Assembly: GCA_963082975.1 (NCBI GenBank)
Contig: OY720348.1
Span: 73,991,719-74,055,718 of the forward strand
Direction of reading: 5' to 3'
Length of the DNA stretch: 64,000 bases
From: Labia minor
Taxonomy: Eukaryota > Arthropoda > Insecta > Dermaptera > Spongiphoridae
Numbering within the stretch: the first letter of the stretch is position 1; every line of letters starts with the position of its first letter. Positions 2,387 to 61,707 of the stretch are shown piece after piece. Under the pieces are notes generated by a model, which worked only from the letters and a program-made list of their open reading frames with translations, was not told the DNA's origin and did not search any database. The position numbers and the translations under genes are program-made.

Positions 2387-2702
2387 AGCTGGAGTGTCTC
2401 CACTCGACTATCTCGCATATTTGAATTAGAATAATTAACATACATTATATTTAAATTAAATTTAATTAATTAAATTATAAATGAAAATCAATAAATAATA
2501 TTTATTAAACCAGCGCGTGTTTGGCTCTTTGTTGATGGCACCACGACACGTGCTGGCGCGTGATTTGCAGTCGTGTTAAAAAATTAATTCCGGTACTTTC
2601 AACAATTCAATCAAGCTGAAATTCAATATATAGCAGTTTTTTATAATTTTTAATCATGTGAAAAATTATCCAACATATATCTTTATTTTTACGGTCACGG
2701 TA
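2387..2702 (-). mobile_element. DINE-1-like (Helentron-associated) element, 3' part
   Basis: Read on the minus strand it ends with the family 3' terminus: subterminal repeat GCGAGATAGT, then CGAGTGGAGACACTCCAGCT, whose GGAG-ACA-CTCC can fold. Inside are the conserved block TTTCAGC...GCTGAAA (here degraded) and the CACGTGACGTGGTG-like palindrome. The 5' half with the microsatellite is missing. Confidence 0.75.
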
Positions 2703-4132
2703 ATATATTGGATATGGTGGATATGGTGAATTAAACTGTTTGTAGGATTTGTAGAAATTTGAATATCAAAAAGAATTAAACGAAGTCGTTATATAAATTA
2801 TTGTATGCTAATATATTACAACAGTAAATGGATTTTTAATTTTAAATTTTCATTTCCTTAAAGTGTTGGGGAATAGAATTCTCAGATTATAAGCTTTAAA
2901 AAGCGGTACACGTGTTTTCAAAGAAAGGCAGTCATCTGGAACTAAAAAGAGATAATAGACTAGCAATAGTAATAAATAAAATGGGGAGAATTGGCACTGA
3001 AATGGCAAATCAATTGCTGGTGGTCATCAGTCCCTCCGCACCTCTTCTCAGGCCATTGTGCAAATAGTGGACGAGCTACTAATCGAAATCCTCAACATGA
3101 ATGGAAGCCTCTTGCTGGTGCAAGAGATCAAAACCAATTAGTTTTTTTTTTTTGGAGAAAACGAGAAAAACCTAAGGAGGTAGAAGAATTGCAACTACTC
3201 ACAGTAGATATACCATTTCCATCGACAAGTATAAAAAAAATTGAATTTTTTTGATAATAATTGATAATTTGGAAAAATGTATTTGGCCACAAGAGAAGTT
3301 CAAAAATTACAATAATATTTCAAAATAAAAAAAAATCATAACATATATTTGGTTTATTTTTAAAAGATCAATATTAACAGAGTAAATTGAAGATAAAATT
3401 TGGAGATTATATGAAATTAAATCAATTAAATTAAATTAAAATAATTAATTATTTAGAAATCAAGAATCGATGTATTAGCCAAGAAAGGCGAGGAGAAAAA
3501 CATCTACTCACGGCCGGTTCTAAGGTTTTGAGCGCCCTTTCATACAACTTATCTTTTAAATAATGAATATAAACAAATACTTTATTCTTTAATCCGTGCC
3601 ACTCAAAATTTGGTGCTCGGGAAACCGCCCGACTTGTCCTCCCCATTATCCGGAGCTGCACATAAATAAAAAAATAATTTTATCTCGAATTAAAGATAAA
3701 ATTCATCATTTAAAAATTGTAAGATATTTTCAAATCAATAGAAAATAGGAATGATACATATATTTCTTTCATTTCACTTTTTTGTATTAATTATTTCGTT
3801 AATTACATTTAAAAACTCAAAAAAAGAAAAAAACATTTATAGATTAATTTTCTTCTGATTCAAATAAATAATCTTCATTAGCCTTCTTACTATTCATAGT
3901 TTTGATTGCCTGATTTTGGCTGAATCATTTTCAAAATTAACAAATGTAAATATATATATATATATATATTGAAAATTTATATATATATAAAGCCTCAGTA
4001 ATAGCAGAGAAAGGGAATAGGCCGTGCCAAACTCAAAAACGATCAATAAACATTGAATTAAAACACAATAGTAAAAAGATATAGAAGAAATAATAATAAA
4101 TTATATATATATATATATATATACTATTTGAT
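2703..4132. other. AT-rich intergenic stretch with possible transposon debris
   Basis: An 87-codon open frame at 2991-3254 has no recognisable domain and ends in A/T runs. At about 3510-3660 a G+C-rich stretch (ACGGCCGGTTCTAAGG ... GCCCGACTTGTCCTCC) resembles terminal sequence of hAT-type elements seen widely in arthropods, but I found no matching second terminus or target duplication. (TA)n tracts lie at about 3952-3970 and 4104-4122. Confidence 0.3.
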
Positions 4133-4360
4133 GAGTATTTTGATGAGATAACAGGCGTTTCCCGACTGCAACCTCAAATATTATTATCCTTCGTGATTAC
4201 ATTCAATTTTTCTACACATTCAAATTCTACATTTTGTATATTAAGATTTTGTATGTTAATACTGTTCCTCTCTGTTAGTAAATATTTTGTCTTATCACTA
4301 TTAATTTCAAACCCCATCTCTTCTCCTGTCTCGATTAATTTTTTTAGGCTACTTTAAATG
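4133..4360 (-). pseudogene. Non-LTR retrotransposon fragment (reverse transcriptase, 3' part of RT domain)
   Basis: Minus-strand reading gives KKLIETGEEMGFEINSDKTK followed by Y, the conserved segment near the end of the RT domain in jockey/RTE-like LINEs (GL..N..KTKY). The same segment, more decayed, precedes the tail of the LINE copies at 35640-36205 and 38690-39320, so all are one family. The fragment breaks off on both sides and carries stops. It is not functional. Confidence 0.65.
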
Positions 4361-4822
4361 TTATTAAATTATTTAATACAAAATAACAAACAAAAAGTAA
4401 ATAATAAAAATAAAAATAAAATATAACGAAATTTGTATAATGCATACTGGCCACAGGTCAACTTATTAAAATAGATTTGCAATCATTTCCAAATATCTGA
4501 ATAATATGAATTTTATTTATGAATTCTACTTATTCAAAGGGATAGTTTAATTTTTACTTATTAATTATTACAAGTATTTACACGAATTGCCAAAATTAAT
4601 TAAAATAACAACAATGTCAAGGAGGTCTATAATTGGATGATTAATGAAATAAATAGATTTAACTCTCACCATTTCTCGACAATAAATAGGTATCTCATAA
4701 TTTCATTCATCATTATGAAAACGATTCAGCAGACATACCTGAAAACAAATAAACAAGTTAATTCATTTGCACAATTTATACGAAAACATTTTAAAAATTA
4801 TTGAATACATCTAAAAATATAG

Positions 4823-4860
<38 letters not shown>

Positions 4861-5817
4861 AAAATATTTTTTTATTAAAATATATTTAATAATTTAATAA
4901 TAATAATTATTATTATTATCTAAATATTGTAATTGATCAAAAGGCTTTTATATTTCCAATGGCCAATAAAATAAATAAATAAAATATTATACGATTGAAA
5001 AAGTTCAGTTAATTAATTATAAATTATAATTTATTAAAATAATTATTATTTTTATGAAAATAAACGTTTATATGTTATTTTTACTTAATTCAAAAAACAA
5101 CATAAACAAAAAAAGAAAGTAAATTTAGAACTTTCCATTTTCTTGCTTAAAATAACATTGCATCTGTCTATTAGAATAGAATATTTGAGATTACAATAAA
5201 TTAATTAAATTAGATCATGATCTATCATTTTTCAAGTAGCCTTTGACAGTGAAAAGTAATATTTTCAATTTTCTGATTGACCTCTTCATTCTCTCGCCCG
5301 GTTTCAATGAACTACAATAACCTATATACCTACGTAGTAATTCCAAGGCGGTCTGAAGAAAAACATAAAGGAAAGCGGGTGGTGGAAATAAATAAAAATA
5401 ACACCATCCTTTTGTTCGTGTTAACTCTAATCACGATTCTTTTTAGTAATTTCATTTTAAACTTTTGCTTTTTACTATTAAGTCTAACTTTGACACCGGA
5501 CAAAGAAGAAGCAAAAATAAGATAAGAGAAAAAAAAAATCCTAAAAAATGGTATTCATTTAGGAGAGAGTGAGAATACTTTTTAATCTCAAAAACAATGA
5601 ATAATTATATATGTAATAATAATAATACGTTTTACAATTTTTTTTTCAAGAATAAAATATAATAAATATTAATTCAAATAATATTGATTATTAATTTTTA
5701 GTACTTTTTACAAAATAAGTAGGGGAAGGACGCGTTAGTAATAAAAGGGTCCACATTTCTTGTTTACTTCTCGATTCTATCTACTTAAAACACCTCAAGT
5801 CCTAACCTTTTCGTTAC
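4361..5817. other. AT-rich stretch, nothing recognised
   Basis: Contains a (TA)n tract at about 4824-4857 and an 82-codon frame at 5277-5525 that is hydrophobic at its end but matches no family I know. Neither supports a gene. Confidence 0.4.
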
Positions 5818-6583
5818 AATACAAACAGTGGCGTACCTAGAACTTTTGCCGCCCGGGGCGATCTCCAGTTTTCCGCCCTTTTTATTATAAGTCAATCAAA
5901 TAGTGGTAATGCACATAAATAAATTATTAAGTTATTTAATCAATATTAATTAATACACAGAGAGTAAATTTTTTTACACATATTTGTATGCACTCGTAAA
6001 CATATTAATATAATATTTACTCTTCTAGCTTTCATACTAGAAAAATCGTGTATAATAATGCTCTCAAAATTTATATTTATATTTTTTCCGTCGGCCCTGC
6101 TTTTCAAAAGAAAAATCGATGATTTAAAAAAATATTGGTATATCACTTCAAAGTAATCATATAAACTTTTCAAAAGAAATGACATTGATAAACTGATATC
6201 AAAAAATTTTAGTTAGGAAAAATTGCTGAACAAAATCGTAAAGATGCCTTTACGAATTCAACGAATTTTAATGAATACCATAAAATAAAATTATTATCCT
6301 GTTCTTGGAATTAGAATTCAAAATTTACACTAAAATGCATTTATATACACCGAGAAATAATATTCGAAATCATATAGTTGATCATAATTTATATAAATCA
6401 AATAGTAAACTTATAATAATCATAATAATGATTTATTATTCAAGAAAGAAAAAAAATAAATATGAAATGAATAAGTTGCTTTTTACAACTATAACTAAAT
6501 ATAAAAAATGCCGCCCCAAGATAAGTGCCGCCCGGTGCGGACCGCACCCACCGCACCCCCCTAGGTACGCCACTGAATACAAA
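5818..6583. mobile_element. Non-autonomous hAT element with 8-bp target site duplication
   Basis: The element is 5826-6575 (750 bp). Both ends carry the perfect 15-bp inverted repeat CAGTGGCGTACCTAG. It is flanked by a perfect 8-bp duplication, AATACAAA, at 5818-5825 and 6576-6583; 8 bp is the hAT hallmark. The terminal ~60 bp are G+C-rich (GCCGCCCGGGGCG left; GTGCCGCCCGGTGCGG right) while the interior is A+T-rich and non-coding. The small open frames at 5946-6185 and 6305-6586 lie inside it and are not genes. Mobility would need a transposase supplied from elsewhere. Confidence 0.88.
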
Positions 6584-7572
6584 TAATTTTGTAATTGCAT
6601 GAAACAACTTCACTTATCTTAGTCGAAATAGTAAAAAAAAGTTAATTTAATAAAGATTACAAAAGACTTAACTATATATATGCAAATTAGAATTATTTTG
6701 CCAGTATGCTCTCCGTCTATATGCGAAAGGTTTTAATTCATTTTAATTCAATCAGTATCTTTTTTATTTCATTTGGATTTTCGTTTTCACTCTAATTTGC
6801 AAATTGCACTATTTTTCAAAATATAAATTTAAATATAAATAATATTGGTTACTTTGTTTTAGAAAATATTAATAAATATATTAATATATATTAAGAGGAG
6901 GTAGTTTATCAACAAATTCAGACACCAAGTAGAAATTAAAAGAATGAAATATAAGCATATTATATTATTTAAAATTTAAATATATTATAGTTAAAAAATT
7001 TAATTTAATATTTAATTAAAAAAATTAATTTTTGATAATTAAATTAGTAAATAATTTAAAAATAATTTAAATAATTTAATTAAATTAATATTTAAAAGAA
7101 TGAAATATATATATGTATATTCAATTAATGAAATATATATATGTATATTCACTTAACAATTTTTAAAAACACCCACGTCGAATAATATCATCTAGTTTGA
7201 TGTGGCCGAATTATGACGTATATGTATATACATAAATGTATTTTAATATTCCCCAACAAATGCAGAGCTATAGTATACATCAATGTATTTCAAATTTTAA
7301 AAATAAATAAATTTGTTTATTTTTTGTTTAGAACTAGTACTAAACCTAAATTTTTGTGTTAGATATAATATATCTACTAATCCATTAACTAATTTACTCT
7401 TCTATTCAATTATCCAGCGTTTAATAATGCTGAAATTATTATATATATAACATCTGATATTATCTGATTCTCTCCAGTCTATTTATGAAATATGGTATAA
7501 TAATATAATTATAAGGGAAAACAAGTAATATATATAGCTTGTCTATTAACAACATCTCTCTATAATTTTATT
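6584..7572. other. AT-rich stretch with a short tandem duplication
   Basis: A 27-30 bp unit containing AATGAAATATATATATGTAT occurs twice in tandem at about 7097-7151. Otherwise A/T runs and no coding signal. Confidence 0.4.
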
Positions 7573-8085
7573 ACTATCTCGCTAGAGATAGATTGCGATC
7601 ACAAAAATTTCCAATGTCGAGATTTTGATGTTTTTATGCGTTTTGAAGGTTCCTGAATCATTTTCACTAAGGTTCAGAAAAATGTGTGTGTGTGTCTGTA
7701 GACATGATTACGCAAAAACGGTTTGAGCTAGAATCATGAAATTTGGTACAAGGACATTATTCAAAATTCATAGTTTTCTAACAACTTTTGAGTAATGTAG
7801 CTCAACCGGAAAAGGGTCATTACCTACCATTTATAGGTTTTGATTTTTATTCCTCTAAAGTGACCGTAAAAATAAAGATAGATGTTTGATAATATTTAAC
7901 ATGATTAAAAATTGTATAAAACTGCTATATATAGAATTTCAGCTTGATTGAATCGCTGAAAGTACCAGAATTAATTTTTCAACACTGCAAATCTCACGCG
8001 CTAACACGTGACGTGGTGCCATCAACAAAGAGTCACACACGTTTAATAGATATTAATTATTAATTTTAATTTATAATGTATAAGT
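7573..8085 (+). mobile_element. DINE-1-like element lacking its 3' end
   Basis: Begins ACTATCTCGC, has the GT microsatellite (GTGTGTGTGTGTCTG), the block GGTTTGAGCTAGAATCATGA, the TCCTCTAAAGTGACCGTAAA block, the TTTCAGC...GCTGAAA hairpin and the CACGTGACGTGGTG palindrome. It breaks off in the A/T-rich segment before the terminal hairpin. Confidence 0.8.
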
Positions 8086-8834
8086 CGTTTTAGGTATATT
8101 ATCCATAAGAAATAAGAACCTAGATTGATAATTGATTTGTGTATATATAGTATGATTAGTATTAAAAATGAATTATTATATATTATATATTATACCCTAT
8201 ATATATATATTTAGATTCATCAAAAATAAAATTTTATTTAATAAATTATTTATTTAATAATATATTATATAATATATTTATTTTATTTAATAAATCTCCG
8301 ATTCTTCGTAAATGATTATCAGTCAATATTCTTTTTTAAATTATTTTTTTAATAAATATAATAAAAATTATTATTATAATATACATTATATAATATTATT
8401 TTTTTTAAATAAAAAGTAAAAGGGAATGATTTATTTTTTCTAATCGTGCGATAAGACACTCGGCTAAATTTCATGGAAAAACAGAATATAAATAAAAATA
8501 GAATTAGAATTTATTTATTTTAATATTGATTTTAATAAAATCTTTTAGTTTCCATTGCAAAGTGAATGTGATCGGTTGGGCTGAGTGTCCGTCCACCTGG
8601 CCAGGTAATTCATTAATAAGTATTTTATTAATTAATAATAATTAGAAATATATTATTTATTTGTTTTCTATCCACACTTTCCATTAAAATGAATATTTTA
8701 ATTAATTATTTATGATTGTTTTTGGATTAACTTATTTGATTTTTACGACTAAACGATATCTATTTATTTCATTTTTCATTTTTTAATGCTCTCATCATCA
8801 TCTTTGGAATATATTAATTAATTAATTACAAATA
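8086..8834. other. AT-rich stretch, nothing recognised
   Basis: Dominated by TA and TTA runs. A more complex segment at about 8560-8610 (CTGAGTGTCCGTCCACCTGG) has no visible coding or RNA structure. Confidence 0.4.
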
Positions 8835-8990
8835 TCCATCAACAAAGAACCAAAGAGCGCTGGTTTAATAAATATTAATTATTAATTTTAATTTACAATT
8901 TATAATTAATTAAATTTAATTTAAATATAATATATTATGTTATTGAATCCAATTCAAATAGCGAGATAGTCGAGTGGAGACACTCCAGCT
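8835..8990 (+). mobile_element. DINE-1-like element, 3' terminal fragment
   Basis: Runs from CCATCAACAAAGA through the A/T-rich segment to GCGAGATAGT and the terminal CGAGTGGAGACACTCCAGCT. It overlaps in content with the fragment ending at 8085, so it is a separate copy and not the missing half of that one. Confidence 0.78.
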
Positions 8991-12724: not shown

Positions 12725-13106
12725 ACAATCTCGCCAGAGATAGTATTGCGATTATGAAAATTTTAAATGTCGAGATTTTGATGTTTTTATACGTTTTGAA
12801 GGTCCCTGAGTCATTTTCACTAAGGTTGAGAAAAATAATTTTTCACATGATTAATAATTGTATAAAACTGCTATATATAGAATTTCAGCTTGATTGATTC
12901 GCTGAAATTTCCAGAATTAATTTTTTAACACTGCAAATCTCACGCGCCAACACGTGACGTGGTGTCATCAACAAAAAGCCAAACATGCGCTGGTTTAATA
13001 TTTATTATTTATAATTTATAATTAATTAAATTTAATTTAAATATAATATATTTTGTTATTTAATCCAATTAAAATTGCGAGATAGTCGAGTGGAGACACT
13101 CCAGCT
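12725..13106 (+). mobile_element. DINE-1-like element with internal deletion
   Basis: Starts ACAATCTCGCCAGAGATAGT and ends at the 3' hairpin CGAGTGGAGACACTCCAGCT. The middle is gone: the block ending AAGGTTGAGAAAAAT joins directly to the segment starting TTTTTCACATGATTAA, removing the microsatellite and the GGTTTGAGC block. Both termini are present. Confidence 0.82.
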
Positions 13107-21273: not shown

Positions 21274-22277
21274 ATAAAAATTACTTTGATCGTTGATGTA
21301 CGCGTGAACTGGAAGATGTGGAGGGAGCAGATAATATGAATATCATTTTAGAAATTAAATTTAAATGTCAATCCTATTTTTAAATTTAATTTTGAAATCA
21401 ATGCAATTATTAAAATATTCAACTTATTATTTATATATAATATATACAAATCTACATCGTATATTGTCTTGTTTAAAAAAAAATCACACTAAGTTTAAAT
21501 AACTAATTTGAATAAGTTACCCTTAAATAAACTTTACTGATTCACTATTTTAAATTCGTCTTTGAATTGTATATGAAGTTATAAAAACAACATTCATTTG
21601 AAATTCATACTATATCAATACCTCAATGAAACATTCAAAATAAAAAAACACGTCTAAAATATGCATTTTCTCGTTGAATATGCAATACAAATTAATTACC
21701 AGAAACAGAGTACTCCATTATTTTTCAATAATTTGGAATTACACATTTAATTCAACTAAAATAAATCTTTTTAATAAAAGTGAGAGAGTATGTTTGTTGA
21801 AAAATAGCTCATGTCCTATCTATGGATTATAAAATATTACATGGATTACATTTGGAAACAATTCATGATTTAGAAGGTCCCGAGATTTGTCGTTCTATGA
21901 ATTATGTATAATTTATATCAATAAATATATAGTACAAATATGTGTTTAAAACTTAATTATTGATTATAAATTAGGTTCTATTTAGAAAGTAAGGAATATT
22001 TTTAATTCATTCTTTCGAAAAAGAATTTTCCATTTTGATTTAAAATGCTATCCTGTAATTTAAATTGCAATAATTATTGCACAAGACGGTTTGGTTATTT
22101 CATGGTGCGACTAATGAATAACAACAACCCTTGTGTTAAATCTATAAATTAATTAAATAATTACCAAAATCAGAATGAAAGAGAAATAATAATGTTAAAG
22201 TAATTATAATTATAAATGATAGTTCTCGAAAGGCGGGAGACTCAATTAAGAGAAGAAGGAGAGAATGGCAAGCACAG
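21274..22277. other. AT-rich stretch, nothing recognised
   Basis: No coding signal or repeat that I could match inside the window. Confidence 0.45.
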
Positions 22278-22650
22278 TGTGTTAAAAAATTAATTCTGGT
22301 ACTTTCAGCGATTCATTCAAGCTGAAATTCTATATATAGCAGTTTTATACAATTTTTAATCATGTGTAGGTAATGACCCTCTTCCGGTTGAGCTACATTT
22401 CTCCAAAGTTGATAGAAAACTACGAATTTTGAATAATCCCCCTGTACCAAATTTCATTATTCTAGCTCAAACAGTTTTTGAGTAATCTTGTCTACATGCA
22501 TACACACATACATACACACACAAACACACACACAGACATTTTTCTCAACCTTAGTGAAAATGATTCAGGAACCCTCAAAACGTATAAAAACATCAAAATC
22601 TCAACATCGAAAATTTTCGTGATCGCTATACTATCTCTGGCAAGTTAGTA
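22278..22650 (-). mobile_element. DINE-1-like element lacking its 3' end
   Basis: On the minus strand it starts near ACTAACTTGCCAGAGATAGT, then CGAAAATTTTCGATGTTGAG, the GT microsatellite (about 22497-22535, interrupted), the GAGCTAGAATAATGAAAT block and the TTTCAGC...GCTGAAA hairpin, stopping at TTTTTTAACAC. A deletion joins CATTACCTACA to CATGATTAAAAATTG, skipping the GTGACCGTAAA block. Confidence 0.8.
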
Positions 22651-27000: not shown

Positions 27001-27609
27001 ACGATCTCGCCAGAGATAGTATTGCGATCACGAAAACTTTCAATGTCAAGATTTTGATGTTTTTATAGGTTTTGAAGGTCCCTGAGTCATTTTCACTAGG
27101 GTTCAGAAAAATGTCTCTCTGTGTGTGTATGTGTGTAGACAAGATTACGCAGAAACGGTTTGAGCTAGAATTATGAAATTTGGGGTTCATAGGGATTATT
27201 CCAAATTCGTAGTTTTCTATCAACTTTGGAGAAATGTAGCTCAACCGGAATAGGGTCATTACCTACAACGTTTTGATTTTTTTTCCTCTAAACTGACCGT
27301 AAAAAAAAAGATATAGGTTTGATAATTTTTCACTTGTTTAAAAATTGTATAAAACTGCTATATATAGAATTTCAGCTTGATTGAATCACTGAAAGTATCA
27401 GAATTAATTTTTCAACACTGCAAATCTTACGCGCCAGTACGTGACGTGGTGCCATCAACAAAGAGCCAAACACGCGCTGTTTTAATAAATATTATTTATT
27501 AATTTTAATTTATAATTTATAATTAATTAAATTTAATTTAAATTTAATACAAAATATGTTAGTTAATCCAATTCAAATTGCGAGATAGTCGAGTGGAGAC
27601 ACTCCAGCT
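27001..27609 (+). mobile_element. DINE-1-like element, essentially full length
   Basis: The most complete copy. In order: ACGATCTCGCCAGAGATAGT, GATTTTGATGTTTTTATAGG, a GT microsatellite (CTCTCTGTGTGTGTATGTGTGT), GGTTTGAGCTAGAATTATGA, CTCAACCGGAATAGGGTCAT, AACTGACCGTAAA, the hairpin TTTCAGC...CACTGAAA, the CGTGACGTGG palindrome, an A/T-rich stretch, the inner GCGAGATAGT and the terminal CGAGTGGAGACACTCCAGCT. No open frame of its own; the 86-codon minus frame at 26999-27259 is chance. Confidence 0.88.
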
Positions 27610-28472: not shown

Positions 28473-29331
28473 TCGGGGAATCGGGGTAAATTACCCCAAA
28501 TGGGGTAAAAATGAAACTTTTGTGAGTGAAAAGTATATATTTTTAATTTGCTGTTTTATAAACCTGTTAGTTCTTTTTACAATCTCGCCAGAGATAGTAT
28601 TGCGATCACAAAAATTTTCGATGTTGAGATTTTGATGTTTTTATACGTTTTGAAGGTTCCTAAGTCATTTTCACTAAGGTTGAGAAAAATGTCTGTGTGT
28701 ATGTGTGTAACGGTTTGCGCTAGAATCATGAAATTTGGTATACGGGAATTATTCAATTATTTCTATCAACTTTTGAGAAATGTAGCTCATTCGGAAGAGG
28801 GTCATTACCTACGAGTTTTGATTTTTTTTCCTCTAAAGTGACCGTAAAAATAAAGATATATGTTTGATCGTTTTTCAAATGATTAAAAATTGTATAAAAC
28901 TGCTATATATAGAATTTCAGCTTGATTGAATCGCTGAAAGTAGCAGAATTCCTTTTTTTAACACTGCAAATCCCACGCGCCAATACGTGACGTGGTGCCA
29001 TCAACAAAGAGCCAAACACGCGCTGTTTTAATAAATATTATTTAATTAATTTTAATTTATAATTTATAATTAATTAAATTTAATTTATATATAATATATG
29101 TGTTAATTAATCTAATTCAAATTTGCGAGATAGTCGAGTGGAGACACTCCAGCTAATCTTATTTTATTATTATATTTTTTAGTTATTGTTTTCTTTTCAA
29201 AATTATCATGGTGGGGGAGGGCTCTAATAGGAAAGATGCTAACAAGAGTTCTTTTTTTTAGCTCTTCACCATGGGGTAATATCAACTTAAACAAAAATAT
29301 TTTGGGGTAATGATTAAAAAGGTGACCGCTG
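28473..29331. mobile_element. Small hAT-like element interrupted by a DINE-1-like insertion
   Basis: The right end reads GGTGACCGCTG, the inverse of CAGCGGTCACC. The left end is worn (GGGGAATCGGGGTAAATT) but matches the better preserved copy at 57911, which starts CAGCGGTGGGGAACCGGGG. ATTTAG (28467-28472) before it and ATTTAGAG (29332-29339) after it look like a degraded 8-bp target duplication. Without the inserted 576 bp the element is about 280 bp and non-coding. Confidence 0.6.
28579..29154 (+). mobile_element. DINE-1-like element, near full length, nested in a hAT element
   Basis: From ACAATCTCGCCAGAGATAGT to CGAGTGGAGACACTCCAGCT. The microsatellite is short and the segment TAGACAAGATTACGCAAA is deleted. 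The flanking sequence continues on both sides as one repeat whose uninterrupted counterpart is at 57911-58110. This fixes the insertion point right after TTTTTAC and right after CCAGCT, with no target duplication. Confidence 0.88.
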
Positions 29332-34593: not shown

Positions 34594-34835
34594 TCTTATA
34601 TATAAAATTCTCGTGTCACAAAACTTTGAAATTATACTCCTCCGAAACGGCTGGACCGATTCTTATGAAATTTTTTATGCATATTCAGTAGGTCTCAGGA
34701 CATGTCAGACTTCTTTCATTAAACCGGTAATTGCTAAGGTGTGTCCAGGGGGTGGTATTTAATTAAAAATAGTTTAGTTACAATGCTAGATCATAGAGGC
34801 GCTGGTGGCGATAATTTGAGATCTATATATTTCGT
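34594..34835 (+). mobile_element. Helitron 5' end fragment (family E)
   Basis: Begins TCTTATATATAAAATTCTCG, then TGTCACAAAACTTTG, CTCCTCCGAAACGGCTGGAC and ATTTTTTATGCATATTCAGT. The first two bases are TC and the base before is A, as Helitrons require. This leader is common in arthropod Helitrons. An inverted copy is at 40846-41076. The 3' end is not present here. Confidence 0.65.
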
Positions 34836-34865
34836 AATAGGAGACTCAGAAACAATACCGTTTCA

Positions 34866-34938
34866 TGACTAAACAAGCTAGCGCGCCATCTTATGACTTT
34901 GCACCCTCAGTTCGAAACTCGCAAAGGCACATTTTTTT
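34866..34938 (+). mobile_element. tRNA-like SINE head fragment
   Basis: AAGCTAGCGCGCC, then ACTTTGCACCCTC and AGTTCGAAACT (B-box-like, 34909-34919), then GCAAAGGCAC and a T run. Arranged like a tRNA D-arm to T-arm, but too degraded for a tRNA. Confidence 0.4.
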
Positions 34939-35639
34939 AAGTATTATATATTTTTTTTACAAATTTATTAATTTTTATTATTTTAATATTTTATTAAATT
35001 ATTTTATTTTATTAAATTAAATTTTATTATTAAATTTTATTTTATTAAATTATTAATTATGTCAATTAATTTTATGTGCATAAATAAACATATATAAAAA
35101 ACTATATGATTAATTGAAATATTGTAAATATTAGAAAAATAAAAATAAAAATATAAATATTAAAAACATCTTTTTTATTGTATTCTTTGCGCTGCTAAAT
35201 GACAACATGTTTATATCAAATTTTTAAAAATTAATTTCTGGGTTTATTGATTAGATATTAATAAAATTTATAGTCTATGAACAGAAATGAAAAATTCTAA
35301 AGTCACTTTTGGATTCTAGAGGACATGAAACGCGAATATACGCAAAAAATTTAAATTCTGAGCAATGTGCAGATAAAAATCTGTTTATATATATATTGTA
35401 TTTACAATATCTCAATTGATCTTATTGGTCTTTTAAACTTTGAAAACATTCACATTACGGCTATAATTTAATACTATTAATTTTTAAGATTATGTGAGTA
35501 AATCATTTTAATTAAGAAAATTTGATCTCATTTGATTTTCACGTAAGATTTTAATATATATTTTAATATTATTTTTATAGTAGTTTAGTGTTATGCTAAT
35601 TTCTTTATATTATACTTTTATTTTGTTTACTTTGTTTTT
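34939..35639. other. AT-rich stretch, nothing recognised
   Basis: Repeated TTATTTTATTAAAT-type sequence at about 34975-35060; no gene. Confidence 0.45.
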
Positions 35640-36205
35640 TTTTTAAATAAATTAATAACATTTAAAGTAGCATAAAAAAATTAATCGAAGCAGGAAAAGT
35701 GATGGGGTTTGAAATTAATTAATTTGATAAGACAAAATAATTAGTATCAGAGAGAATAATATTTGCAAAGAATTTAAATCGAGGTTGCAATCGGGAAATT
35801 ATTATCAAAGGGGATCAAAATTATTAAATTATTAATTGTATTATATGGGTGGGAGGCATGGTCTATAACCCTGGGAGATGAGAGTAGATTCAGAGTATTT
35901 GAGAATAGGATTCTTCCCAGCATTTATGGGCCAAAGAAAGATGAGGACACCGGGGAATGGCGGAGACTGCATAACAAGGAATTGCATGACCTCTATGCAT
36001 CTCTAGATATAGTTAGGGTTATAAAAGTGAGAAGGCTGGGATCGGCAGGGCACATGGCTAGAATGGGAGAGGAAAAATATATTGGTGGGGAGTTCGATTG
36101 GAAAACGTCCGTTTGGAAGACCAATTGTGAACAGGGTGGACAATGTAGGAAGGAACGTGAGAGAGATGGGACAGGGTAGGAGCTATAGCTCAGAATAGGG
36201 ACACT
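35640..36205 (+). pseudogene. LINE 3' end, decayed
   Basis: Same family as the copies at 18385 and 38690. A trace of the RT end (GFEIN...) lies at about 35704-35740. From 35838 the frame reads LYGWEAWSITLGDESRFRVF, ENRILPSIYGPKKDEDTGEW, RRLHNKELHDLYASLDIVRV, then IKVRRLGSAGHMARMGEE, where the usual RLRWAGH has mutated. Frameshifts follow. The sequence stops at GACACT and is joined directly to a Helitron tail at about 36206. Confidence 0.8.
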
Positions 36206-39665: not shown

Positions 39666-40120
39666 AGCTGGAGTGTCTCCACTCGACTATCTCGCAATTT
39701 GAATTGGATTAAATAACAAAATATATTATATTTAAATTAAATTTAATTAATTATAAATTATAAATAATAAATATTAAACCAGCGCATGTTTGGCTTTTTG
39801 TTGATGGCACCACGTCATGTGTTGGCGCGTGAGATTTGCAGTGTTAAAAAATTAATTCTGGTAATTTCAGCGAATCAATCAAGCTGAAATTCTATATATA
39901 GCAGTTTTATACAATTATTAATCATGTGAAAAATTATCAAACATATATCTTTATTTTTACGGTCACTTTAGAGGAAAAAAAATCAAAACGTTGTAGGTAA
40001 TGACCCTCTTCCGGTTGAGCTACATTTCTCAAAAGTTGATAGAAAACTATGAATTTTGAATAATGTCCATGTACCAAATTTCATCATTCTAGCTCAAACC
40101 GTTTTTGCGTAATCTTGCCT

Positions 40121-40203
<83 letters not shown>

Positions 40204-40258
40204 TTTTTCTCAACCTTAGTGAAAATGATTCAGGAACCTTCAAAACGTATAAAAACAT
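39666..40258 (-). mobile_element. DINE-1-like element with expanded CA/GT microsatellite, nested in repeat L
   Basis: From the 3' terminus AGCTGGAGTGTCTCCACTCG at 39666 through all conserved blocks to the GT microsatellite (40125-40199, about 37 CA units on the plus strand), then AACCTTAGTGAAAATGATTC and AAAACGTATAAAAACAT. The outermost 5' segment (ACTATCTCGC...GAGATTTTGATG) is missing. The 78-codon frame full of His-Thr is just the microsatellite. Confidence 0.85.
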
Positions 40259-40500
40259 TTATAAAAAACGTTTATATCATTTGTCTAAAAAACATTTTAA
40301 TTAACCAAGAAATCATTTTTGCACTTAAAATATATTTGTAATAATAATTGATACAAAATCAAAAATAATATAATTTAGTTATATTAATTTACGTTTTGAA
40401 AATATTTTTGTATTCATAAAACATTAAAAATAATATATTCTGTTTTTTTAAGCTTTCACTTTCAAATAGAAAAGAAGAAATATTCCAATATATAGAAAGA
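40259..40500 (+). repeat. Right half of repeat L
   Basis: Matches 45950-46190 (CGTTTATATCATTTGTCTAA, AACCAAGAAATCATTTTTGC, AAATAGAAAAGAAGAA). About 100 bp present at 45840-45945 are missing at the junction with the DINE-like element. Confidence 0.72.
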
Positions 40501-40845: not shown

Positions 40846-41076
40846 AAATCTCAAATTATCGCCACCAGCGCCTCTATGATCTAGCATTGTAACTAAACTA
40901 ATTTTATTTAAATTCCACCCACTGGACACACCTTACCAATTAGCGGTTTTATGAAGGAAGTCTGACATGCCCTGAGACCTACTGAATATACATAAAAAAT
41001 TTCATAAGAATCGGTCCAGCCGTTTCGGAGGAGTACTTTTTCAAAGTTTTGTGACACGAGAATTTTATATATAAGA
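40846..41076 (-). mobile_element. Helitron 5' end fragment (family E)
   Basis: Inverted copy of 34594-34835: on the minus strand TCTTATATATAAAATTCTCG, CTCCTCCGAAACGGCTGGAC, CATTGCTAGATCATAGAGGC-type sequence, breaking off at GATTTGCTC. The TC start is preceded by A. Confidence 0.65.
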
Positions 41077-49431: not shown

Positions 49432-50010
49432 ACTATCTCGCCAGAAATAGTATTGCGATCACGAAAATTTTCGATGTTGAGATTTTGATGTTTTTATACG
49501 TTTTGAAGGCTCCTGAATCATTTTCACTAAGGTTGAGAAAAATGTCTGTGTGTATGTAGACAAGATTACGCAAAACGGTTTGCGCTAGAATCATGAAATT
49601 TGGTATACGGGAATTATTCAATTATTTCTATCAACTTTTGAGAAATGTAGCTCATTCGGAAGAGGGTCATTACCTACGAGTTTTGATTTTTTTTCCTCTA
49701 AAGTGCCCGTAAAAATAAAGATATATGTTTGATCGTTTTTCAAATGTGTAAAGATTGTATAAAACTGCTATATATAGAATTTCAGCTTGATTGAATCGCT
49801 GAAAGTACCAGAATTCCTTTTTTTAACACTGCAAATCTCACGCGCCAATACGTGACGTGGTGCCATCAACAAAGAGCCAAACATACGCTGGTTTAATACA
49901 TATTATTTAATTAATTTTAATTTATAATTTATAATTAATTAAATTTAATTTATATATAATATATGTGTTAATTAATCCAATTCAAATTTGCGAGTGGAGA
50001 CACTCCAGCT
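49432..50010 (+). mobile_element. DINE-1-like element, near full length
   Basis: ACTATCTCGCCAGAAATAGT at the start and CACTCCAGCT at the end. A 9-10 bp deletion turned the inner GCGAGATAGTCGAGTGGAG into GCGAGTGGAG, removing the inner subterminal repeat while the terminal hairpin stays. The sequence is otherwise close to the copy at 28579, including the truncated GGTTTGCGCTAGAATC block. Confidence 0.86.
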
Positions 50011-53064: not shown

Positions 53065-53102
<38 letters not shown>

Positions 53103-54307: not shown

Positions 54308-54355
54308 TTGTGACCATACCTTTCAACCGGGACTATCCCGTTCAAAACGGGACGT
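54308..54355 (+). repeat. Fragment of a GTGACCATA/CCGGGAC repeat
   Basis: TGTGACCATACCTTTCAACC then GGGACTATCCCGTTCAAAAC and GGGACG. Related to the minus-strand fragment at 13171-13220. Widespread type in animal genomes; class not determined. Confidence 0.35.
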
Positions 54356-55925: not shown

Positions 55926-56068
55926 TCTTATATATTATAAATAAAATAAAATTAAAAATATTTATGTTATATCCATATCTGTTTTTATAGCATTAATACA
56001 TACATTTAAATTATTTGTAAATGTTTCAAAACGTTTACAAGATCCTCCGTAAATACAAAAATTATATA

Positions 56069-56200
56069 CTAGCTGCTCAGTCCGCCTTGGGCGTTCTTCA
56101 CACCTCGATGGGGGCCCTGTATTTGGTTAGAAGTTTATATCCATATTGTTTCAATCAGTATATTACATAAAACATTTGAAAAATTTACATTTAATTAAGA
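56069..56200 (-). mobile_element. Helitron 3' terminus (family G), decayed
   Basis: On the minus strand ends GAACGCCCAAGGCGGACTGA then GCAGCTAG and T. The hairpin has mismatches. The inner part (TTTCAATCAGTATATTACAT on plus) matches 38585-38615. Confidence 0.62.
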
Positions 56201-57360
56201 AAACTAATGAAAGATTTTCATCAAATTGAAACAATAAATAGTGGAAGAGTTGATAATTATAATTTTTAAATCTAATAAATTATTCTGACGAGAATTTTCA
56301 AATGGATTTATAATCCTTGACCATGGATCATTCAAAATCAAATAATCTCTGATTTTTTTAATGTTCCTTTCAGAATATATAATTAAACATTTGAATTTCC
56401 AATCAATTTATTTTCATTAAAAAAAATGCATGTTTTCTTTTTCATCTTCATGCTCGATCCTCCCTCTCCACAATACTAATTTGTTTATTTTTTTGGATGG
56501 TCTACCATGTTTATTAGAGATTCGAGCAAATTCGAGTTAATAAATCAAACCATTTTTATGTAACTTTCCTAATTCCATTGAGTAGGTTGAATTTAATGAA
56601 TGGACCTCACACATCTCTAAAAAAAATGGAGTTAAGCAAAAAAAAATCTTGTTAGAAGGAGCCGGGTATTTGATAATTGATTAAATTCGATCTTTTTCAC
56701 GAACAGTTGAGGATTCTTTTTCAAAACACATCGGTCATTTATCAAAATTCGTTATCATCATATTTTCGAAGTGTTAAGTTTGTACTCTAGAAATATATCT
56801 TTTTATTTATTTGTCTGTTTTTTTATTTTTGTTTTTTTTTTTTGTTTGTTATTGATGGCCAGCGCCAAGCGAAGCGGTTCGCGTTTTCAATATCGAATCC
56901 CGATGAATAATATCAAACGATTTATCATTGCACTTGAGCTTTTCACCCCCCACCCCTATGCCCACCTAAACCTGGCCGATACTTGAAATAGGCTCAAAAA
57001 CTCGGTGCCAGATGGATATCGATGCATTTCCCGGGGTGCATCCGGGCACAGCTGTCGAAGAAGGGGCAGAAGTTCTGCCAGCACAAGCAGAAATGCATAC
57101 AGCGAAAACGGACAAAAAAAAACAATAGAAAAATTAAAATAGCTATGCATCTGACTAAACATGTAAATCCCAATGCAAATAAACAATCACTGTAGTATAG
57201 GAATAAGAGAATTCACTCTCAAGAATTCAATAAAAATATCCAAATATTTCTTAAAATCAATATCAAACACCAGGATTTTTTTATTTTTTTAGATTTTTCT
57301 TTATAACTTAAATAGAACTAAGGATTATTTACAAATGAAAATATATTTATATATATATAA
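56201..57360. other. AT-rich stretch with a G+C-richer island at 56850-57190
   Basis: After a long T-rich tract, an ATG at 56855 opens a 44-codon frame (MASAKRSGSRFQYRIPMNNI...) ending at 56986. Its base composition is much less A/T-biased than the surroundings. No domain is recognisable, and an overlapping frame exists on the minus strand (56956-57186). It could be an exon edge, a small protein or non-coding; unsupported. Confidence 0.25.
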
Positions 57361-57850
57361 TATATATGTAAAATGTTAGAACATTGGTTAAGTTGGTAGG
57401 ACATGTGTTGAATCTTTAAGATAGACTCACAACTGATTAGCCAACTAGTATTTGATTAGCAACTGGCATATGTTTAATAATTAATATTGTAATTATAAGT
57501 GAATAATAACTATAAAAACCAGTTTATAATAATGTTATTATTATAATTTTAAATTTTGATTTAGGTTAGGTTAGTATTAACTATAGGCCGATTTCGTTTC
57601 TAAAAGGAAAATTTTATTAGTTAAAAATTATATATGATACAAAATAAAATAAATAAAATAATAACTCCAAACCTTACCTAAAAGGAAATTGGTTTTTATA
57701 GTTATTATTCACCTATAATTACAATATTAATTATTAAACATATGCCAGTTGCTAATTATATACTAGTTGACTAATCAGCTGTGAATCTATCTTAAAGATT
57801 CAACAGATGCCCTACCAACTTAACCAATGTTCTAACATTTTACATATATA
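57361..57850. mobile_element. Large foldback MITE with arms of about 155 bp
   Basis: TGTAAAATGTTAGAACATTG at 57368 and its inverse ending at 57844 start two arms that remain paired for about 155 bp (57369-57525 and 57690-57843) with roughly ten differences. TA repeats border both ends. The middle is A+T-rich. The arms end in ACTATAAAAACCA, shared with the foldback at 53988. Confidence 0.85.
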
Positions 57851-57910
57851 TATAAAATTCAAATAATTTAAACTACAATTTTTTATTATATCTTAAATAT
57901 ATTCCTATGG

Positions 57911-58110
57911 CAGCGGTGGGGAACCGGGGTAAATTATCCCAAATTAAATTTTTTGGGGTAAAAATGAAACTTTTGTGAGTAAAAAGTATATATTTTTAAT
58001 TTGCTATTTTATAAACCTGTTAGTATTTTTACAAATTAAATTTTTAGTTATTGTTTTCTTTTCAAAATTATCATGGGCGTCTATAATGGGAAAGATGATA
58101 AAAAGAGGCG
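57911..58110 (+). mobile_element. hAT-like element fragment, the uninterrupted counterpart of 28473-29331
   Basis: Starts CAGCGGTGGGGAACCGGGGT, a typical hAT terminus. It continues AAAATGAAACTTTTGTGAGT, CCTGTTAGTATTTTTACAAA, GTTATTGTTTTCTTTTCAAA. Where the 28-kb copy carries the 576-bp DINE-like element, this one has none. The right terminus is lost. Confidence 0.7.
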
Positions 58111-59745
58111 ATTTGTTTTGTTTTTTTGTTCTTTTTGAATCAAAGTCGCCTAGAGATCTGTAAAGACATACCATTTATCATAATATATATATATTAATAT
58201 ATATATATACAAGTATGTAAATATTAATTAATTTTATATATCATCACAGAAAATAATTTCATTATTTTCATGTAAATACAAAATGTAAATCTATAACTAA
58301 TTAATTACATATATTAGATGGATAAGTAGATAGTTCATTAATTAGATAGTAAGTTTAAATAGAAAGTAGATAGATCATTAATTAATAACAAATTATATAA
58401 TTTTTTATTAAAATACCAATTTTATCTCTGACATTTAAATTAATTACTTCTATGTTCATTAATAGCTATATATCAATCATTAATTTAGTTAATTGATTTA
58501 TTTCTTGTTATTAGAAAAGGTAGGTGACCCAGTGGCCATTCGGTAACCCCAACCCCCTCTTCATCTCCAATCCATGAAAAGTTTTTAATTAAATTAATGG
58601 TGAATATTCTATAGATTCCAATATATACAGTTCGTTGTATGTAAATATCCCTGTGTATATGTAATAAAATCACCTAGAGTTGTTTTCAATCGTTAAATGA
58701 CAAATATTTGCTAAATCTAAATATCCTTTGATGCTAAGTAATGAAAATTTAAATTCCCATCCATGAGTTGCCATCAACAAGTGAATATTTTTAATTAATA
58801 CAAATATGAAAGCTTTGAAAAAAAATCAAAAAGCATCCCATAGGATATTAATAATGACATATAATATTAATATTATTATTAACAATATCATTGAACCAAT
58901 AATCAATATTATGAGGAGAGATTTTTATGAGTGGGTGCTGATGAGTGCATTAGAAACGATCTATTGAGTTATATATAAATACGAGTATATACACGTATAT
59001 AGTAAAATATTTGTATTTCCATCTGGGTGGAAGGATTTGAGTTAATCAATACTCCTATTGTTTGTTATTATCATTGAAAATTATATAATCTAAAAAAATG
59101 AATATTTAATTATATTTGATTGTCAAGTTTTTTTTTTAAATTAATTTTATTATTAATTAACTATTTTGTCAGATTTATTTTACGGATTTATAATTTCATT
59201 CATTATCAAGAGTAAGTATTTAATTTAATCTAGGGAAATTTAACATTTGGAGATTTGTAATGCTTTTGTTAAAATAATATGGATACAAATGGTTATTTCC
59301 ATGAATTATAACACAGAAATATATATATATATGTTAATATATTTATGTTTAGATAATAATAAAATAATATTAAAAATATATAATAATAAATTTCTTAGAA
59401 TCTAATATTTTGCATCCATATTTAATCAAATATACTTAATTTTACTAATACAATTACTATATATATATTGTCATATCATGTTTCTGATTTAAATATGAAA
59501 ATCAATTTTTTTTTATAAATTTTTAAGATACTCTATTATTTTTGCAATAAAAACATCAATGAGTTCTGCAAAATGTCAGTAGTTGCTGTAGGCAATATCT
59601 GTATAGTACGGTGGATGTTGAAACAATTCGAATCATAATCCTTTTAATTATTTTTTATCCACATGAGTCAGTGAGCATTGTGTTGGTGAAGTACTAAATT
59701 TTCTTTTTAGATGTCTGTTTTTTCTAAATAGGGATAAATAAATTA
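58111..59745. other. AT-rich stretch, nothing recognised
   Basis: Imperfect GATA-like repeats (AGTAGATAGTTCATTAATTA) at about 58325-58390 and (TA)n at 58184-58210. No coding signal. Confidence 0.4.
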
Positions 59746-60225
59746 TTAGGTTGGAGGGAAAGTTCTGTCGTATTTTTTGTAGGTAATTTTTCTTCTTGGA
59801 AAATAATCCACATTGAAGAAGAAATTGCAGAAGAGTTTGGCATTCATCATACAACTGTTGGAGATTACATTAAATCTTTTAGGTTTGTGTTAAAGTAAAG
59901 TGTTTGGATTCCACATGAATTAACGGAAAATTATTTGTCTGGTTGTGCAAGAATGTGTTCATCACATCTGATTAGATACAATGTAAAGAGCCGTTTTGGA
60001 CAAGATGGCTACAGGAGATGCAAAGTGAATTCTTTACGAGAATAGGAAGAGAAATAAAATTTGACTGCAAACCAGGAACATCATCAGCAACAGTTCCAAA
60101 ACCAAGTATCCATCAACGAAAAGTAAAAAAAAAACGCTTTGTTTGTTGTGAGACAAGAAAGGTCCAGTATACTACAGAGAACAACCATTCTGTACTGTAA
60201 TCAGCTGGATAAATTGAATGAATTG
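59746..60225 (+). pseudogene. Mariner transposase relic with left terminus
   Basis: TTAGGTTGGAGGGAAAGTTC followed by TGTCGTA at 59746 is a mariner-like terminal repeat. Downstream: EEEIAEEFGIHHTTVGDYIK, then after a stop SVWIPHELTENYLSGCARMC and SSHLIRYNVKSRFG, where the mariner motif W-V/I-P-H-E-L is clear. A second frame from 60018 reads TVPKPSIHQRKVKKKRFVCC and ETRKVQYTTENNHSVL, matching the region around the second catalytic aspartate of mariners (IHQRKVLL.VWWD..G.VYYE), which is not preserved. Stops, frameshifts and missing segments make it dead. No right terminus was found. Confidence 0.82.
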
Positions 60226-61210
60226 AAAATAATATCCAAACACTGTCTTAATAAAGTATTATTAATATACTACTACTATCATTTTATAATGAACGTTTTA
60301 ATTATAATCTAATATTAAATATTTCCACTTACTAAATATTTGATTATTTTAATTTTAAAATTAAATATCCGGTTTTATTGAATAAATCTATAAAAATTAG
60401 ATCGATAATTATAATATTATCCAATATAATTATATATATTTAAAATGATTTAACTTGGCTTAAATAGAGAATATTCCATATTTTTAGTATAATTATGGTA
60501 GAATCTAATTTTGTGTATGTGTGTAAACACCCACGCTTTGGTTGGATACAAGTTGTAATGATTTTGTTTATTTTCACCTGGTAAACCTGAAAATGAAGCA
60601 GGAAAGGATTAAATAAAATAGAAATAATCTTTTTCTTTGGCTATGAATTTTAAATAGAAATAAATGAGCTTCGTTAAAGCATAACCCTACTGACAGTTGA
60701 TAAACGGAGATATTTATTTATTTATTTTTTCTCTCTTTTTCTTTACTATGTTAAATGTAATCTTGTGTTATCATCTTTATGATTTCATATCATTCACAGA
60801 CTTTTATGTATTTTATCCTCGATAAAAATTCAATTTAATATGAAATTCTTTCTTCTTTAGTTAGAAAAAACCGACAGAGAGCGAAAAAATGTATATTCAG
60901 ATTATATCTATAAATATTTCCTCAACGTACCTTTTGAAACATCGGCAAACATTGGAATTTTCTTAAACGATTACTCTATTTATTTTCTGTTGTAAGTTGC
61001 TCTACGAATTCTGTCGCTCTCATCTAAAAATATAATTTAAAAGTTGAATTGCAAACATCTTGGAATGTTCAACAGACAATTTCAAATCATTTGCAAGAAT
61101 CCGAAATTCGTTGGAAATCCACTTTAATTCACTTTCACCGCTAAAAGAAATTATTTTTATTTGGTGATTTTGGTTCAATATTCCGATAAACTGTTTTTTA
61201 CCGTTTGGTT
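60226..61210. other. AT-rich stretch, nothing recognised
   Basis: No frame above 60 codons, no matched repeat. Confidence 0.45.
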
Positions 61211-61707
61211 GTAATGTCTGTGTGTGTGTGTGTGTGTGTGTGTATGTATCTAGACAAGATTAGACAAAAACGGTTTGAGCTAGAAATATGAAATTTTCTC
61301 TACGGGCATTATTCCAAATTCGTAGTTTTCTCTCAACTTTTGAGAAATGTAGATGGTCATTACCTAACACCTTTTCATTTTTTTTCCTCTAAACTGACCG
61401 TAAAAATAAAGATATAGGTTTGATAATTTTTCACATGATTAATAATTGTATAAAACTGCTATATATAGAATTTCAGCTTGATTGAATCGCTGAAAGTACC
61501 ACAATTAATTTTTTAACACTGCAAATCACGCGCCAACACGTGACGTGGTTCCATCAACAAAGAGCCAACCATGCGCCGGTTTAATAGATATTATTTATTA
61601 ATTTTAATTTATAATTTATAATTAATTAAATTTAATTTAAATATAATATATTCTGTTATTGATTCCAATTCAAATTTGCGAGATAGTCGAGTGGAGACAC
61701 TCCAGCT
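61211..61707 (+). mobile_element. DINE-1-like element lacking the first ~130 bp
   Basis: Begins at the GT microsatellite (AATGTCTGTGTGTGTGTGTG), then AAAACGGTTTGAGCTAGAAA, AACTGACCGTAAAAATAAAG, the TTTCAGC...GCTGAAA hairpin, ACACGTGACGTGG, GCGAGATAGT and the terminal CGAGTGGAGACACTCCAGCT. Confidence 0.84.

What the first reader, a model, noticed from the sequence alone, without database searches (positions are those of the whole stretch)
2387..61707. An abundant DINE-1/Helentron-like non-autonomous family: ten copies in 64 kb
Copies at 2387(-), 7573, 8835, 12725, 22278(-), 27001, 28579, 39666(-), 49432 and 61211 share one plan: a 5' ACTATCTCGC subterminal repeat, a variable GT microsatellite, conserved blocks, an inner GCGAGATAGT (inverse of the start) and a terminal stem-loop CGAGTGGAGACACTCCAGCT. 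This is the architecture described for Drosophila DINE-1 and other Helentron-associated elements. Together they fill about 7% of the window by my coordinates. The assignment to Helentrons is by structure, not by homology.
Basis: partly seen in the sequence, partly recalled or inferred. Interest (0 to 1): 0.75.

Follow-up and report, generated by a model that had tools for sequence, protein, structure and literature searches.

The report
Abundant Helentron-type jumping DNA family
The ten repeats are real copies of a short, protein-less jumping DNA family that is very common in this genome and very likely borrows the enzyme of a rare, larger rolling-circle transposon (a Helentron) ending in the same sequence; it is a known kind of element, here tied to a likely partner by one shared end.

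Summary
Confirmed. Ten segments (4,614 bp, 7.2% of the window) form one repeat family; four keep both ends. The 604 Mb genome holds 14,644 exact copies of the 20-base 3' end, 34,820 with up to 2 mismatches and 9,600 exact 5' hairpins. The plan is that published for DINE-1/HINE: T-rich flanks, 5' subTIR with adjoining inverted repeat, microsatellite, 3' subTIR, terminal hairpin, no target duplication beyond Ts. Its Rep motif is RGSPH (Helentron mark), not RGLPH as in the canonical Helitrons here; a third Rep type without endonuclease also has RGSPH. Endonuclease and Ulp1/C48 matches at its C-terminus are below cut-off; relative P0007 has both above. The partner's 5' end was not found, and copy 27001 shares nothing else with it, so it may not be the direct parent. 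Verdict: new member of a known kind.

The parts
2387..2698 (-). copy 1: 3' part with subTIR (2407-2416) and stem-loop end (2387-2406); 5' truncated
7573..8090 (+). copy 2: 5' end, microsatellite and core; 3' end missing
8836..8990 (+). copy 3: last 155 bp with 3' subTIR (8961-8970) and stem-loop (8971-8990); overlaps copy 2 in element coordinates, so a separate fragment
12725..13106 (+). copy 4: both ends, internal deletion removing the microsatellite
22275..22649 (-). copy 5: 5' part with internal deletion; no 3' end
27001..27609 (+). copy 6: full element, 609 bp
27001..27020 (+). 5' subTIR plus adjoining inverted repeat of copy 6 (ACGATCTC GCCA GAGATAGT; the commoner head ACTATCTC... folds as a 9-bp hairpin)
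27122..27137 (+). GT-rich microsatellite of copy 6
27580..27589 (+). 3' subTIR GCGAGATAGT of copy 6
27590..27609 (+). 3' terminal stem-loop CGAGTGGAGACACTCCAGCT of copy 6
28579..29154 (+). copy 7: full element, 576 bp; its insertion point lies inside a host repeat; 40 scored genome matches without the element span the junction
39666..40280 (-). copy 8: 3' end intact, long GT microsatellite, 5' truncated
49432..50010 (+). copy 9: both ends, 579 bp; 3' subTIR partly deleted
61215..61707 (+). copy 10: microsatellite to 3' end; 5' truncated

Best explanation
The copies are Helentron-associated interspersed elements (HINEs, the DINE-1 kind): non-autonomous rolling-circle transposons of about 0.6 kb. 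Inferred mechanism: the Rep (HUH) domain of a Helentron transposase recognises the 5' end (TTWTT then the ACTATCTC/GAGATAGT hairpin) and the 3' end (subTIR plus hairpin ending CAGCTWA), nicks at the T-flanked ends, the PIF1 helicase peels off a single strand, the 3' hairpin serves as stop signal, and the strand is joined into a T-run without target duplication. A likely partner exists in this genome: a Rep/PIF1 element, with endonuclease and C48 matches below cut-off, that ends in the last 39 bases of copy 27001. Shown: family, ends, abundance, T-run insertion without consistent non-T duplication, partner ORF and shared 3' end. Inferred: recognition, strand transfer, mobilisation in trans.
For: Ten copies, 7.2%. 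Ends: of 20 left flanks, T at -5, -2 and -1 in all and at -4 in 95%; of 40 right flanks, T at +3 in all and +4 in 97%. Target duplication: mean non-poly-T direct repeat 3.28 bp over 18 copies against 3.07 for shuffled pairs (29% of shuffles as high). Empty sites: copy 7 and the L001 copy lie in host repeats; joined flanks of 180 bases match right across the junction in 40 of 41 rows (40 of 981 candidates scored) with spans of 167-186, and in 40 of 40 rows (40 of 1,266 scored) with spans of 182-202; the window paralogue 34723-35107 shows the L001 site base by base. Partner: ORF of 2,181 aa with Helitron_like_N and PIF1 and DUF6570; exact 3' end about 1.25 kb downstream, same strand; second copy (97% aa over 256 aa, frame interrupted) with the same tail and end and different flank. 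A 30-base piece of that tail occurs without mismatch twice in the genome, at these two places; 20 more places have 3 mismatches. One of seven downstream pieces fetched beside Rep genes has the end. Rep motif RGSPH in the partner, RGLPH in canonical Helitrons here; tree.
Against: The partner's 5' end was not found in 5.0, 2.2 and 1.35 kb on the 5' side of three copies: in one, homology stops inside the gene; one is interrupted by what looks by eye like a gypsy-type integrase; one shows no end within about 3.2 kb of the ORF. A further copy on C10 has no 3' end within 1.5 kb. Copy 27001 shares only the last 39 bases with the partner; over the last 60 bases identity is 72-83% for the eight window ends and 65-85% for 30 other loci, so only 5 of 38 reach the published 80% subfamily rule. 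Endonuclease match is below Pfam's cut-off (21.1 against 27.4 bits). RGSPH is also found in a third Rep type of this genome that shows no endonuclease. The 3' hairpin alone folds only modestly (z -1.4; 20 of 200 shuffles as good).
Confidence: 0.92

Rival explanations
1. Non-autonomous canonical Helitron, mobilised by one of the RGLPH Helitrons of this genome.
For: The 3' end reads CTAA before T in most copies (+1 A 68%, +2 A 95% of 40), which fits the Helitron rule CTRR with a hairpin just upstream; canonical Helitrons are present, seven loci with 100% (rounded) identical protein over 1,186 aa. The L001 site can be read as insertion between A and T.
Against: Conserved bases TTWTTACTA precede the TC near the 5' end, so 5' TC is not terminal; a third of right flanks have T at +1 (CTTA, not CTRR); Helitrons lack the subTIRs (PMC2374699, passages); neither downstream piece of an RGLPH gene carries the end (L063, L064).
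Confidence: 0.04
2. MITE of a cut-and-paste (DDE) transposon.
For: Short, AT-rich, many copies, inverted 10-base repeats; DINE-1 itself was once filed as a MITE (PMC2374699, abstract, passages).
Against: The inverted repeats are not terminal (the hairpin follows on the 3' side); no consistent target duplication beyond Ts; the one protein-coding element found with this 3' end is a Rep-helicase. DDE genes were not searched for.
Confidence: 0.02
3. HINE family, but the true partner is another, unseen Helentron; the C1 element found here only shares an end by common descent.
For: Only the last 39 bases are shared, whereas published mite HINEs are deletion derivatives 84-99.9% identical to the partner (PMC4067079); sampled genome copies are young (mean 94.7%, up to 99.7% pairwise, 190 pairs), so an active source existed recently.
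Against: No second gene-linked copy of the end was seen: the other six downstream pieces of Rep genes lack it; but most of the 104 Rep matches were not followed downstream. Compatible with the best explanation: it changes the partner, not the class.
Confidence: 0.4

Closest known systems
Drosophila DINE-1 / INE-1 (Yang and Barbash 2008, PMC2374699, passages seen)
   Same: 5' subTIR with adjoining partial inverted repeat, microsatellite in the left block, a (TA)n stretch in the conserved core, 3' subTIR followed by a hairpin, T-rich insertion sites, no large ORF, very high copy number.
   Different: GT-rich instead of GTCY microsatellite; subTIR 10 rather than 13 bp; no large central tandem-repeat block in copy 6 (one search shows short, mostly AT-rich repeats only). 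Homology of the core to DINE-1 was not tested.
HINE and Helentron families of Metaseiulus, Culex and Drosophila (Thomas et al. 2014, PMC4067079, passages and one section seen)
   Same: Non-autonomous elements with subTIRs, 3' palindrome and terminal Ts of variable number; partner with S in the Rep motif 2, PIF1 helicase and a C-terminal match to Exo_endo_phos_2.
   Different: Copy 27001 shares only the last 39 bases with the partner, not long stretches; the endonuclease match is below cut-off; the partner ORF also has a C48-like match; no RPA gene was looked for.
Cg_HINE elements of the oyster Crassostrea gigas (Vojvoda Zeljko et al. 2020, PMC7492417, passages seen)
   Same: SubTIR, complementary IR and microsatellite on the left; subTIR and palindrome on the right; oligo-T insertion, no TSD.
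   Different: Those carry satellite-like central repeats, and their authors could not link them to an autonomous Helentron; here a 3'-end link is found.
Helentron-type proteins P0001 (Araneus ventricosus, spider), P0002 (Physella acuta, snail), P0007 (unnamed)
   Same: 58%, 57% and 49% identical over 84-86% of the 1,568-aa query; P0007 has Rep, PIF1, Exo_endo_phos_2 and Peptidase_C48, the last two above cut-off.
   Different: Only proteins were seen; their element ends are unknown here. Of four relatives scanned, two show the endonuclease (one above cut-off), two show C48, and P0003 shows neither.

Membership tests
HINE / DINE-1-like element | No coding capacity | tested here: met
   No stop-to-stop frame of 120 aa or more lies in any of the ten copies (3 in the whole window, elsewhere).
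HINE / DINE-1-like element | Subterminal inverted repeats, one at or near the 5' end, one internal at the 3' side | tested here: met
   ACTATCTCGC at the 5' end, GCGAGATAGT 20 bases before the CAGCT end. 10 bp, one short of the published 11 bp family rule.
HINE / DINE-1-like element | Short inverted repeat beside the 5' subTIR | tested here: met
   GAGATAGT follows after GCCA; the head folds at -7.2 kcal/mol, z -4.8.
HINE / DINE-1-like element | 3' palindrome / stem-loop | tested here: met
   GAGTG/CACTC stem in all 8 window 3' ends; folding alone only z -1.4.
HINE / DINE-1-like element | Insertion in T-rich sites, no target duplication other than Ts | tested here: met
   20 left and 40 right flanks, 18 pairs; two empty-site comparisons. 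A TT duplication cannot be told from target Ts; one pair (L016) has a 12-base AT-rich repeat.
HINE / DINE-1-like element | Autonomous Helentron partner with the same ends | tested here: inconclusive
   3' end met in two copies; 5' end not found.
HINE / DINE-1-like element | Homology of the ~90 bp core to Drosophila DINE-1 | not tested
   No DINE-1 sequence was fetched or compared.
Helentron (the partner) | Rep motif 2 with S between G and P | tested here: met
   VEFQMRGSPHEH. Not exclusive here: the third Rep type also has it.
Helentron (the partner) | Diagnostic triplet F/Y, w/l/y/k, R before motif 2 | tested here: inconclusive
   Partner reads YER before VEFQ: first and last fit, the middle E is not in the published list.
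Helentron (the partner) | PIF1-like helicase in the same ORF | tested here: met
   PIF1 E 1.5e-31.
Helentron (the partner) | C-terminal apurinic-type endonuclease | tested here: inconclusive
   Exo_endo_phos_2 E 3e-4, 21.1 bits, below the 27.4 cut-off; 24.8 bits in P0001, 27.7 in P0007, none in P0003 and P0033 at E 0.001; GDFN motif present by eye.
Helentron (the partner) | Groups apart from canonical Helitrons | tested here: met
   Tree of 23 proteins (17 of 120 listed hits, chosen by me, and six from this genome), 1,119 columns: the two RGLPH Helitrons form one clade, support 1.000, with the third Rep type nearest to them and the partner elsewhere. No named reference Helentron was included.
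Helentron (the partner) | Separate RPA gene | not tested
   Not looked for.
canonical Helitron | 5' TC and 3' CTRR ends, insertion between A and T | tested here: not met
   5' TC not terminal; 3' CTAA in most but CTTA in about a third. The L001 site could be read as A|T because the ends lie in T-runs.
MITE (DDE) | Terminal inverted repeats and a fixed target duplication | tested here: not met

The most novel reading that the evidence does not exclude
The partner belongs to a lineage of Helentrons whose single ORF joins Rep, PIF1 helicase, apurinic-type endonuclease and a Ulp1/C48 (SUMO-protease-like) domain, where OTU proteases are the kind described, and it mobilises tens of thousands of HINEs in trans through little more than the last 39 bases and a 5' hairpin; the protease would be part of the transposition machinery (self-processing or host SUMO removal).
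Probability: 0.3. Interest if true: 0.5.

Novelty: new member of a known kind. Interest (0 to 1): 0.36.

Why it matters
HINEs are among the commonest repeats of some invertebrate genomes, and the partner of a family is often not known (so for the oyster HINEs, PMC7492417). A family this large and young, with a partner candidate sharing only the extreme 3' end, is a good place to ask which sequences a Helentron transposase really needs, and how such elements seed microsatellites genome-wide. The C48 domain, if confirmed, adds a second kind of protease to the Helentron toolkit.

Tried and rejected
Partner search by PF14214 (104 matches): none of the 30 Rep loci fetched at once carried the ends; downstream pieces beside other Rep genes (L061, L062, L063, L064, L066, L067; L061 and L062 are one type) had none; only L065 did. 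The partner's 5' end was sought in L068, L082 and L083 without success; the 5' side of the C10 copy was not fetched. The idea that a second HINE-like stretch in L068 shares the core of this family was dropped: local alignment score 35 against a shuffle maximum of 38. A long element in L009 (1,358 bp) is not a partner derivative: its only strong match to the partner pieces L065, L068 and L082 is the last 39 bases (its matches to L069 are to a neighbouring copy of the same family). Text search for core letters in papers: 0 papers. The species was not identified: the partner protein has no near-identical hit (best 58%). Rows dropped: of 21 copies for which the script found a 5' head, 5 whose head did not begin with ACT were left out of the left-flank count; 4 window copies were added by hand, giving 20 left flanks, 18 of them with a usable right flank. 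The identity count used only copies of 540-700 bp (17 from C1 and 3 from the window; 190 pairs; the C1 loci were chosen by an exact 3' 20-mer, so biased to young copies).

Papers: PMC4067079, passages and one section; PMC2374699, passages; PMC7492417, passages; others only as search listings. 'Helentron' with 'Ulp1': 0 papers in this library; four of five Helitron/Ulp1/OTU/endonuclease/Rep-helicase terms: 0; 'Helitron' with 'Ulp1', 'protease' and 'transposon': 11, seen as listing only.
Full report
What is there. The ten segments are real and belong to one family. BLAST with five of the copies returns exactly the ten places named, 4,614 bp or 7.21% of the window, and nothing in ten resampled windows. 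The end motifs are far above chance. Four copies have both ends (12725, 27001, 28579, 49432); two lack the 3' end and four lack the 5' end. Identity to copy 27001 is 84-93% per matched piece.

How common it is. The window lies on contig C10 of a 604 Mb assembly. The exact 20-base 3' end occurs 14,644 times (7,216 and 7,428 on the two strands; the reversed control pattern 0 times), 34,820 times with up to two mismatches, and the exact 20-base 5' hairpin 9,600 times. With a mean of about 460 bp per copy, as in this window, that would be roughly 1 to 3% of the genome (my estimate). Twenty near-complete copies, 17 of them from the start of C1, are 94.7% identical on average (range 89.8-99.7%, 190 pairs), so the family was active recently; the C1 sample was chosen by an exact 3' end and leans to young copies.

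Anatomy. From 5' to 3': TTWTT, the subTIR ACTATCTCGC with its inverted partner GAGATAGT directly behind it (a hairpin of -7.2 kcal/mol, z -4.8), a left block, a GT-rich microsatellite, a conserved core that includes CTATATATAG, an AT-rich right block, the 3' subTIR GCGAGATAGT, the stem-loop CGAGTGGAGACACTCCAGCT and WA. The 3' hairpin folds only modestly by itself (z -1.4).

Insertion. In 20 left flanks the five bases before the element head are TTWTT almost without exception (T at -5, -2, -1 in all, at -4 in 95%; A in a quarter at -3); in 40 right flanks T follows at +3 (all) and +4 (97%). Direct repeats other than poly-T between the flanks of 18 copies are no longer than in shuffled pairs (3.28 against 3.07; one copy, L016, has a 12-base AT-rich repeat, unexplained). 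Two copies sit in host repeats. For L001 the window holds an empty paralogue (34723-35107): the host reads CACATTTTTTTAAG where the filled site has CACATTTTT, element, AATTTTTTTAAG, and 40 of 40 scored genome matches (of 1,266 candidates) span the joined site. For window copy 7, 40 of 41 rows do so, and a 78%-identical paralogue lies at window 57918-58107 with gaps at the junction. Because the ends lie in T-runs, insertion between TT and TT, insertion after the last non-T base, and a TT duplication cannot be told apart.

The partner. Of 104 Helitron_like_N matches, one, at C1:47.868 Mb, lies in an open frame of 2,181 aa. It has DUF6570, Rep and PIF1 helicase, and in its last 478 residues weak matches to Exo_endo_phos_2 (E 3e-4) and Peptidase_C48 (E 0.0033), both below cut-off; a PDB search of that part gives SENP8 at E 0.016. 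Most of the weaker rows of a genome search with that part match only its residues 172-246, as retrotransposon endonucleases would (the reading is mine). Of four relatives scanned, P0007 has both domains above cut-off in the same order, P0001 an endonuclease just below it, P0033 C48 alone and P0003 neither. An alignment of three C-termini keeps HW, QQ and CG (pairwise identities only 18 and 24%; the aspartate column is doubtful). About 1.25 kb downstream of the stop, same strand, lies the exact 3' subTIR and stem-loop. A second copy at C1:44.694 Mb (97% aa identity over 256 aa, frame interrupted) has the same tail ending at the same base, followed by different host DNA. A 30-base piece of that tail occurs without mismatch only at these two places. 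By density alone (one same-strand end per about 35 kb) such neighbours at 1.3 and 0.25 kb would be expected by chance with a probability of a few in ten thousand (my estimate).

Class of the partner. Rep motif 2 is VEFQMRGSPHEH. Thomas et al. (PMC4067079, section read) give S between G and P as a Helentron mark; their second mark, the triplet before the motif, is met only in its first and last letter (YER). Among the fetched loci 23 read RGLPH; RGSPH is found in the partner, in its relatives L067 and the C10 copy (L072, L077, L080), and also in a third Rep type without an endonuclease match (L056-L059, L061, L062, L066), so the motif alone does not prove a Helentron here. In a tree of 23 proteins the two RGLPH Helitrons stand on a long branch of their own, the third type is nearest to them, and the partner groups with P0001 and P0002 (17 of the 120 listed hits were used).

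What does not fit or is missing. The 5' end of the partner was not found: in one copy homology stops inside the gene, one is interrupted by what looks by eye like a gypsy-type element, one shows no end in the 3.2 kb between ORF and the limit of the stretch, and the C10 copy was not fetched on that side. The C10 copy also lacks a 3' end within 1.5 kb; the C60 copy seems to run off the contig start. Copy 27001 matches the partner over the last 39 bases only, and over the last 60 bases only 5 of 38 ends reach 80%, so the family is not a simple deletion product of this element. It may be moved in trans by it, or by a sister Helentron that was not seen; most Rep matches were not followed downstream.

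Mechanism. Most likely the family is copied by the rolling-circle route of Helitrons and Helentrons: Rep nicks at the T-flanked ends, the helicase displaces one strand, the 3' hairpin marks the stop, and the strand is joined at a T-run without duplication. The sequence shows the signals and the enzyme; every catalytic step is inferred from what is known of the group.

Verdict. It is a new family of a known kind. The less usual part is the C48 match: no paper in the library holds both 'Helentron' and 'Ulp1', while OTU proteases are described (PMC4067079, passages).

Noticed in passing
L037-L043 (C9:43.365, C9:45.51, C10:14.93, C1:82.18, C2:51.17, C5:81.09 and C9:43.358 Mb): A canonical (RGLPH) Helitron with 100% (rounded) identical protein over 1,186 aa at seven loci and open frames of 1,537-1,652 aa: recent activity of a second rolling-circle family.
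   Followed up: partly
L056-L059, L061, L062, L066: A third Rep-helicase type with RGSPH motif but no endonuclease match in the pieces scanned; L056-L059 are 99-100% identical. It is nearest to the canonical Helitrons in the tree.
   Followed up: partly
L065/L068 against P0001 and P0002: The partner protein is 57-58% identical to proteins from a spider and a snail, closer than to the named insect hits among the 120 listed; possible horizontal transfer.
   Followed up: no
C5:46.74-46.79 Mb: Five equal Rep matches 5.7-9.8 kb apart on one strand: looks like a tandem array of a Helitron fragment.
   Followed up: no
window 34723-35107 and 40848-40947: Copies of another dispersed host repeat, with at least 40 genome relatives; the first serves as empty site for a HINE insertion.
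   Followed up: partly
L065 about 1850-2870: About 1 kb between the partner's stop codon and its 3' tail that is absent from the second copy (L073); its first ~100 bases are also in the C10 copy, the rest looks like a further insertion.
   Followed up: no
L016 flanks (C1:1,005,651): One copy has a 12-base AT-rich direct repeat in both flanks, the only long one among 18 pairs.
   Followed up: no
window 35778-36179: Open frame of 133 aa that looks like the end of a retrotransposon reverse transcriptase (by eye, not searched).
   Followed up: no
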